Origin: Candidatus Aenigmatarchaeota archaeon
GTDB taxonomy: Archaea > Aenigmatarchaeota > Aenigmatarchaeia > GW2011-AR5
Length of the DNA: 64,000 nt
NCBI GenBank assembly: GCA_016184005.1
Contig: JACPDL010000002.1
Span: 1 to 64,000 of the forward strand
Direction: 5' to 3'
Of this stretch, positions 29,719 to 56,792 are shown one piece after another; positions within the stretch are counted from its first letter, which is position 1; every line of letters starts with the position of its first letter. Below the pieces are notes generated by a model. The model worked only from the letters and a program-made list of their open reading frames with translations. It did not search any database and was not told where the DNA came from. Position numbers and translations under genes: made by a program.

Positions 29719-30124
29719 ATGATATGCTCTTAATACTCCCACGACTAATTCGAGGAAAGCAATAGCTTTCCTGAATTTCTCAAAGGACTTTTCTGAAGTC
29801 CTTTGCAGAAAAGTCGTGGGTTTCTGAGAGCATCTTCGAAGAGCAAAGCTCTTCGAGACCTTGCAGAACTTTGTTCTGCAAGGTGTCATCCCAACATTGT
29901 TTGTGTAATACATGGTGAAACAAGTTTCACCTGTACAGGAAGAACTCCGTTCTTCCTCGTATCTGCTGTCTAATCCTAAATCAAGCAAAGCTTGATTTGG
30001 ATTCATTAGAAAATCTATGAGATTTTCTATGCACCGAAATAGCTTTGCTGTTTCGAGTGTCTCAAAGGATTTTGAAGAAATCCTTTGCAGAAAAGACAGC
30101 AGTTTTAAACAATGTTGCGGATAA
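29719..30124. repeat. structured element, 'filled' copy (about 121-nt core plus four hairpin insertions)
   Basis: core matches 55251-55372; inserts about 29748-29810, 29834-29884, 29911-29961, 29973-30092. Confidence 0.85.
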
Positions 30125-30170: not shown

Positions 30171-30308
30171 GCCACCGTAGCTCAGTTGGTAGAGCGGCAG
30201 TTTCGTAAGAGGAGAAAACTACGTTTCTCCTTCTAACCTCTTCCTTTTGCAGAAAGGAAATGGAAAAGAAATAACTGCAGGCCAAGGGTTCGACTCCCTT
30301 CGGTGGCT
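30171..30308 (+). tRNA. tRNA-Thr(CGT) with 65-nt intron at 37/38
   Basis: GCCACCG/CGGTGGC acceptor, D-arm GCTC-AGTTGGTA-GAGC, anticodon stem GCAGT/ACTGC, loop TTCGTA[intron 30208-30272]A, T-arm AAGGG-TTCGACT-CCCTT, U73. Confidence 0.92.
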
Positions 30309-30857
30309 CTATTTCTTCTTCAGCACGAAATCAACTTCTGCAATGCCGCCGAACTTGTATGCCAGAAAGCGCTCGGAGAACCAGTGATTCCTGTTGAGCA
30401 GCCAGTTCCAGAACATGCAGAAAGGCTTGAGAAGAAAGCTCATGCTTTTGAAATTGTCTGGATCGTCCCATACAAGCTTCACAGAAACTGCTTCAAATAA
30501 GCCTCTCGTGTCTTCGAGGACGCTCCATATAGAGAACCCGTGCCAGTGGACATGCACTGCGTAGCCGCGGGTGAAATAAGGCACGTTCAAAACCAGAAGG
30601 CCGTCGGGCTTCAGTATCCGGTGCAGCTCGCGCAGGACTTTGTCGGGCTCTTTCAGGTGTTCCAGCACGTGATTACAGTAGATTTCGTCAACAGAATTTG
30701 CCTTGAAAGGATATGGGATTTTGTCCAGATCAACGTTTTTGTCCACCCTTGCATCAGGGTATTCGGAAAGATTGTCGACGTTGATCCATCTTATTTGCTC
30801 AACGGATTCTCTATAATCTTTCCCTGAACCTAGATTGACTACTGTTCTTTTTTCCAT
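30309..30857 (-). CDS. class I SAM-dependent methyltransferase
   Basis: NLGSGKDYRE, IPYPFKANSVDEIYCNHVLEHLKEPDKVLRELHRILKPDGLLVLNVPY. Confidence 0.85.
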   Translation of the reverse strand: MEKRTVVNLGSGKDYRESVEQIRWINVDNLSEYPDARVDKNVDLDKIPYPFKANSVDEIYCNHVLEHLKEPDKVLRELHRILKPDGLLVLNVPYFTRGYAVHVHWHGFSIWSVLEDTRGLFEAVSVKLVWDDPDNFKSMSFLLKPFCMFWNWLLNRNHWFSERFLAYKFGGIAEVDFVLKKK

Positions 30858-55250: not shown

Positions 55251-55372
55251 ATGATATGCTCTTAATAATCCCACGACTAAAGTCGTGGGTTTCTGAGAGC
55301 ATGTCATCCCAACATTGTTTATGTAATATCTGCTGTCTAAAGACAGCAGTTTTAAGCAATGTTGCGGATAAT
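55251..55372. repeat. structured element, 'empty' copy; two hairpins CCCACGACT-AA-AGTCGTGGG and CTGCTGTCT-AA-AGACAGCAG
   Basis: matches the core of 29719-30124; both tip loops intact. Confidence 0.85.
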
Positions 55373-56213: not shown

Positions 56214-56378
56214 ATATTTGTCACTAACAAGTAATTATAATAGAAAGGTTTTTAAGGGTTGTGATTGGGCTGTTTTTAAGAAGTGCGAGAGGGCGGATTG
56301 CTGCAGAGAAGCAAAAGCTTCTCTGAGCTCTCAGCGAGCTCCGCTCAGCTGCAGACGAACCGGGGTTTGAATCTTAAA

Positions 56379-56601
56379 TGCGAGAGGGCGGATTCGAACC
56401 GCCGAACGGACTAACCGACAAGATTACCCCGTTTTATGTGTTTTTTGATTGACCTTTCTTTTGAAAGAAAGGTCACTTGAGTTTCGCAATCATCTTGTTT
56501 TTCATGACTCAAGATAGCACTTGCGCCTTTTTCTGTAATCCTTTCCGTTAACGCTTTTCGCGTGAGTCGAAAAGGGTTAGACCAGGCTTGGCTACTCTCG
56601 C
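56379..56601 (-). tRNA. tRNA-Leu(CAA) with three introns (D-loop, 30/31, 37/38)
   Basis: mature model GCGAGAG-TA-GCC-AAGCCTGGTC..-GGC-G-CAAGA-CTCAAGA-TCTTG-T-CGGTTAGTCCG-TTC-GGCGG-TTCGAAT-CCGCC-CTCTCGC-A; introns about 56528-56575, 56483-56519, 56425-56475. Confidence 0.85.
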
Positions 56602-56792
56602 AAGAGGAGAAGAAACCTTAGGTTTCTCTCCTTCTAACCTCATTTCCTAATCAAAAATATTAATAGAATAAGCTTTCTTTGCTAGAAAGCTTTCAGCTTT
56701 CTAGCAACTCAAGAAGCTTGTGCTTCTTCGAGTTTTCCAAGGTTTTTCATCATAGTTAGAAGCAAAGTGCTTGTTTAATTCCAGAAAAAGCT

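What the first reader, a model, noticed from the sequence alone, without database searches (positions are those of the whole stretch)
30207..30242. Hairpin module inside the tRNA-Thr intron recurs directly beside tRNA-Leu
Thr intron begins AAGAGGAGAAAAC-TAC-GTTTCTCCTTCTAACCTCTT. At 56602-56641, abutting the 5' end of tRNA-Leu, is AAGAGGAGAAGAAACC-TTA-GGTTTCTCTCCTTCTAACCTC. The flanks (AAGAGGAGAA...TCTCCTTCTAACCTC) match while stem and loop vary in a paired way. The same module as an intron and as a spacer hairpin links tRNA introns to the mini-hairpin family.
Basis: seen in the sequence. Interest (0 to 1): 0.78.

Follow-up and report, generated by a model that had tools for sequence, protein, structure and literature searches.

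The report
Archaeal hairpin repeat doubling as tRNA intron
A short hairpin sequence scattered through the genome of a tiny archaeon, often fused to the ends of genes, also forms the introns of several of its transfer-RNA genes, which suggests that small mobile palindromes can create tRNA introns.

Summary
The tRNA-Thr(CGU) intron (30207-30242) and the sequence abutting a type-II tRNA (56602-56641) are two copies of an interspersed repeat with about 20 recognisable copies in this 0.92-Mb genome (Candidatus Aenigmatarchaeota lineage). The unit is a roughly 45-nt hairpin, TAAGAGGAGA-hp-TCTCC-Y-TCTA-MCCTC, with a one-base bulge and a pyrimidine-rich tail; its outer stem covaries across 37 copies from nine genomes. 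Inverted heads-out doublets were seen only in tRNA introns; singlets lie elsewhere. Copies begin at or next to the splice junction in Thr, two Ala and D-loop introns, and in a tRNA-Arg of a Micrarchaeota-labelled contig. Of 25 intergenic copies, 12 abut a stop codon and two an ATG. Five of 14 copies compared are missing from a sister species, one with a clean empty site; at one site the sister has a different hairpin family after the same stop codon. Best reading: a REP/REPIN-like, trans-mobilised palindromic repeat favouring TA(A) sites that has colonised, and probably created, tRNA introns. The mobilising enzyme is unidentified. No RNA data were available.

The parts
30171..30309 (+). tRNA-Thr(CGU) gene interrupted at 37/38
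   Evidence: ARAGORN and Rfam RF00005, 56.7 bits
30208..30272 (+). 65-nt intron of tRNA-Thr, opening with the module
   Evidence: ARAGORN intron position; splicing itself not shown
30207..30242 (+). Copy of the hairpin repeat (family 1) inside the Thr intron
   Evidence: Pattern hit, R1 65.6 bits at 30206-30256
30241..30259 (+). Second hairpin TTCCTTTTGCAGAAAGGAA, corresponding to the spacer hairpin between the two units of full doublets
   Evidence: Direct reading; compare Ala(GGC) and G011 Thr introns
56602..56641 (+). Copy of the hairpin repeat of the right-half type, abutting the 5' end of the minus-strand tRNA; conserved at the same place in sister genome G001
   Evidence: Pattern hit; G001 locus L038; R1 21.8 bits
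56378..56601 (-). Interrupted type-II (Leu-like) tRNA gene, isotype unresolved
   Evidence: ARAGORN 56378-56602; gene also present in G001
55251..55372 (.). 122-bp two-hairpin MITE, absent from the orthologous G001 site; context for the mobile hairpins, not part of family 1
29719..30124 (.). Copy of the same MITE just upstream of tRNA-Thr, carrying four insertions made only of mini-hairpins; context, not part of family 1
   Evidence: Alignment to 55251-55372

Best explanation
The module is a non-autonomous palindromic mobile repeat that works like a bacterial REP/REPIN. The unit is a roughly 45-nt imperfect hairpin with a one-base bulge and an unpaired conserved tail; two units in inverted heads-out orientation form a roughly 95-nt doublet, and singlets are probably remnants. 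Copies sit next to TA(A)-like sites and survive where they do little harm: directly after stop codons, directly before start codons, at a tRNA 5' end, and inside tRNA genes at the anticodon loop (37/38) and the D-loop. In tRNAs the copy begins at or next to the 5' splice junction and is presumably removed by the splicing endonuclease EndA, so the element behaves as an intron and has probably created some of these introns. Shown: multiple copies, covarying structure, doublets and singlets, abutment to stop codons and splice junctions, presence/absence between sister species, an EndA gene. Inferred: active transposition, insertion rather than deletion as the direction of change, TA(A) as target, splicing, and the mobilising enzyme (a trans-acting HUH/Y1 transposase is the leading candidate).
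For: Four exact genomic copies, no control hit; 26 model hits in the genome and hits in eight relatives. Stem covariation over 37 copies. Doublets in Ala(GGC), G011 Thr, G004 and G001 D-loop introns that fold far better than shuffles where tested (z -5.4 and -4.8). Stop-codon abutment in 12 of 25 intergenic copies and ATG abutment in two; at C2:21502 and C5:117187 the same stop exists in the sister without this element. Missing in G001: C4:10787 with clean flanks and C4:8116, C4:520520, C5:117187, C2:21502 replaced by family 2. The same tRNA-Thr(CGU) site holds family 1 in G000 and G011 and family 2 in G004. EndA present; Y1_Tnp at three contig ends. REPs likewise supply stop codons, form dimers and have 1-bp bulges.
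Against: No transposase is physically linked to the repeat, and the hairpin at the one Y1 gene end read is unrelated. Direction of the presence/absence changes was not polarised by an outgroup; C4:10787 could be a deletion between short repeats in G001. Nine of 14 compared copies are shared with G001 in some form, so much of the distribution is vertical. No tetranucleotide tag is conserved. A strict bulge-helix-bulge was not found at every junction; the Ala precursor shows only one 3-nt bulge.
Confidence: 0.68

Rival explanations
1. Introns came first: the doublet is a tRNA intron that spread between tRNA genes by intron transposition, as in Thermoproteales, and the intergenic singlets are off-target landings, perhaps through the excised RNA.
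For: Doublets, the more complete form, were seen only in tRNA introns. Intron transposition is inferred for Thermoproteales.
Against: Most copies are outside tRNA genes and in one orientation relative to stop codons; no reverse transcriptase or reverse-splicing signature was sought or seen.
Confidence: 0.17
2. The repeats are functional RNA or DNA signals, such as 3'-end hairpins or terminators directly after stop codons, kept by selection and copied by recombination; the intron copies borrow the same hairpin.
For: Exact abutment to stop codons in the same orientation and a pyrimidine-rich tail after the hairpin; compensatory stem changes.
Against: Copies also lie in reverse before ATGs and in tRNA introns; the sister species lacks several or has another hairpin family there.
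Confidence: 0.12
3. Chance similarity or a local duplication of one sequence.
For: Only two copies lie in the 64-kb window.
Against: Copies on several contigs and in several genera, 0 in 12.8 Mb of simulated DNA.
Confidence: 0.01

Closest known systems
REP/REPIN elements (GTAG and CGTC repetitive extragenic palindromes), mobilised by RAYT Y1 transposases
   Same: Short imperfect hairpins with one-base bulges and small loops, inverted doublets and singlets, subfamilies with compensatory stem changes, termini that supply stop codons
   Different: About 20 copies, no conserved GTAG or CGTC tag, no linked RAYT found, and copies inside tRNA genes as introns, which the REP papers read do not report
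tRNA intron transposition in Thermoproteales (Fujishima et al. 2010, described in PMC4090602)
   Different: Here the intron sequence also exists as an intergenic repeat, which offers a DNA-level source; the Thermoproteales mechanism is called unknown
tRNA-Thr intron gain through a mobile element in Caldiarchaeum (PMC3293823)
   Same: A mobile element proposed as the cause of a tRNA intron
   Different: That element is 1.8 kb and coding; this one is 45-95 nt and non-coding
Rickettsia palindromic elements and other prokaryotic MITEs (PMC10969869)
   Same: Short palindromes spread by trans-acting enzymes, also within genes
   Different: Those sit in protein genes; the review does not mention tRNA genes or introns

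Membership tests
REP/REPIN | Short imperfect palindrome repeated in extragenic space | tested here: met
REP/REPIN | Conserved GTAG or CGTC tag at one end | tested here: not met
   The tail reads GGGTAG, GGTTAG, GGGTAC, GGGTAA or GGGTCA in different copies (reverse strand)
REP/REPIN | Inverted doublets as the mobile unit | tested here: inconclusive
   Doublets exist in tRNA introns, but intergenic copies are singlets and mobility of doublets was not shown
REP/REPIN | Linked RAYT (Y1 transposase) | tested here: inconclusive
   Y1_Tnp C-terminal fragments at three contig ends, cut off by the assembly, no link to the repeat
Archaeal tRNA (BHB) introns | Interrupts a tRNA gene at a position where removal restores the tRNA | tested here: met
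   Thr and Ala(CGC) called by ARAGORN at 37/38; Ala(GGC), Arg and D-loop cases read by eye
Archaeal tRNA (BHB) introns | Bulge-helix-bulge at the junctions | tested here: inconclusive
   The Ala(GGC) fold shows a 3-nt bulge at the 5' junction only; the Thr fold shows none clearly
Archaeal tRNA (BHB) introns | Excision by EndA in the cell | not testable with these tools
   EndA gene present in all five genomes tested; no RNA data

The most novel reading that the evidence does not exclude
An archaeal 'introner': a palindromic element whose insertion at TA(A) sites directly makes a spliceable tRNA intron, giving a DNA-level mechanism for archaeal tRNA intron gain.
Probability: 0.4. Interest if true: 0.87.

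Novelty: new variant of a known kind. Interest (0 to 1): 0.72.

Why it matters
How archaeal tRNA genes gain introns is an open question: intron transposition has been inferred without a mechanism. Here the same element occurs both as a mobile-looking spacer repeat and as tRNA introns, in a lineage where genomes with and without given copies can be compared site by site. That makes the question directly testable.

Tried and rejected
Split, trans-spliced tRNA halves (suggested by the opposite orientations of the copies): rejected because complementary copies lie at unrelated places and pairing would join different tRNAs. Chance: rejected. Viral vector: neither this module nor family 2 matches IMG/VR contigs. 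Known RNA family: Rfam finds only tRNAs in the window. The first MAFFT alignment A1 misaligned the loops and was replaced. The end of the Y1 gene as source of the element: its hairpin is unrelated. R1 hits that cover only model positions 6 to about 26 are other mini-hairpins, not members. ARAGORN without intron options found no tRNA in the window.

Full report
What is there. The window is contig C3, bases 1-64000, of a 919-kb, 94%-complete genome in five contigs. The Thr intron copy (30207-30242) and the copy at 56602-56641 are as quoted. The second tRNA lies on the minus strand, so in its transcript the module is a reversed 5' leader.

A repeat family, not a pair. The exact pattern has four genomic hits and none in the control; a looser one has 15 matches at 13 places. 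A covariance model gives 26 hits at E<=0.01 in G000, 13 in G001, 11 in G004, 15 in G011, 3 in G013, 2 in G002, 1 in G008, marginal hits in G005 (2) and G031 (1), and none in the other 31 genomes searched. On inspection about 20 of the 26 are true members. One further copy lies in a tRNA-Arg(UCU) intron on a contig labelled Micrarchaeota UBA95; a misbinned contig is not excluded.

Structure. The unit is TAAGAGGAGA, a variable small-loop hairpin, TCTCC, one bulged pyrimidine, TCTA, then a conserved pyrimidine-rich tail. Across 37 copies from nine genomes (loops removed by hand and replaced by a fixed spacer) the outer stem is 98.9% paired, three of five pairs have changes on both sides, and 16 cells are double-changed against 2.1 in shuffles; slid controls are lower. 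Copies share ancestry, so cells are not independent events, and repair of DNA palindromes could give the same pattern without any RNA function.

Doublets. In tRNA-Ala(GGC) of G000, tRNA-Thr of G011 and D-loop introns of G004 and G001, two units face each other around a TTCCTTCTGAAGGAA-like spacer. The Ala and G004 doublets fold far better than shuffles, z -5.4 and -4.8. At one D-loop site G000 keeps a half where G001 has the doublet.

Where copies sit. In one search, 12 of 25 intergenic copies (two of them orthologous to each other) abut the stop codon of an open frame within 3 nt, and two abut an ATG on the other strand. Because the element begins TAA, an open frame could simply run into it; but at C2:21502 and C5:117187 the sister species has the same stop without this element.

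Presence and absence. Against syntenic G001 (mostly about 85-97% identical): C4:10787 is missing with nearly identical flanks and C4:8116 is missing; C4:520520 is missing; C5:117187 lacks the hairpin after the same TAA; at C2:21502 G001 carries a different hairpin family (family 2, CAAATCCCTTTCTT...) after the same TAA. Shared in some form: the Leu-side copy, C4:378634, C4:252600, C4:233744, C4:8763, C3:96674, C2:52233, C4:425199 and C2:19735. The direction of change was not polarised. tRNA-Thr(CGU) holds family 1 in G000 and G011 but family 2 in G004, and tRNA-Thr(UGU) in G005 has a 21-nt intron beginning AGAGGAGAAAC.

Nested insertions. A 122-bp MITE at 55251-55372 is absent from G001 and present in G001 at a place where the window is empty; its copy at 29719-30124 carries four insertions made only of mini-hairpins. 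A TACA-hp-TGTACA-hp-TGTA cassette interrupts the C4:425199 copy, with TA on both sides. Perfect hairpins with stems of 8 bp or more number 36 in the window against 3 in one local shuffle.

Mechanism. The closest working model is REP/REPIN: singlets, inverted doublets, bulged hairpins, termini that supply stop codons, trans-mobilisation by a Y1 transposase. Y1 fragments lie at three contig ends, which suggests a multicopy element that broke the assembly, but no link to this repeat was shown. EndA is present. That the tRNA copies are spliced is inferred from their position in otherwise complete tRNA genes. As a REP the family fails the tag test, so I say it works like a REP/REPIN, not that it is one.

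Noticed in passing
window 29719-30124 and 55251-55372; G001 L127:13386-13507: A 122-bp two-hairpin MITE with reciprocal presence/absence between sister species; one copy is filled with four mini-hairpin insertions, which gives exact insertion boundaries.
   Followed up: partly
G000 C2:7078, C2:53812, C3:80966, C3:94665, C4:200913 and others: A second hairpin family (AATCCCTTTCTT..AAGAAAGGTCTTTG..CCCAAAGAA) also occurs as tRNA introns (Pro, His, Thr-UGU), next to tRNA 3' ends, before ATGs and after a stop codon; 11 exact copies here and copies in seven relatives.
   Followed up: partly
G000, 14 RF00005 hits: Only 14 tRNAs are found by Rfam in a 94%-complete genome and nearly all of these are interrupted, some in the D-loop; many other tRNAs are probably missed because of introns.
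   Followed up: partly
G000 C2:6-98, C3:117685-117783, C4:548760-548858: C-terminal pieces of a Y1 (IS200/IS605-type) transposase at three contig ends, as if a multicopy element broke the assembly.
   Followed up: partly
L139:4661-4720 (G000 C4:10787): The inserted copy leaves the original ATG in frame with the next one, a possible 20-residue N-terminal extension of a pilin-like protein.
   Followed up: no
L171 and L154 (tRNA-Thr-UGU): The region before the tRNA-Thr(UGU) D-arm is expanded by tandem AGAACTGGTAA-like repeats.
   Followed up: no
window 56300-56380 and L010:1450-1500: A similar hairpin-rich sequence (AAGATTTGAACCCC... on the minus strand) lies just downstream of both the type-II tRNA and tRNA-Glu.
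   Followed up: no
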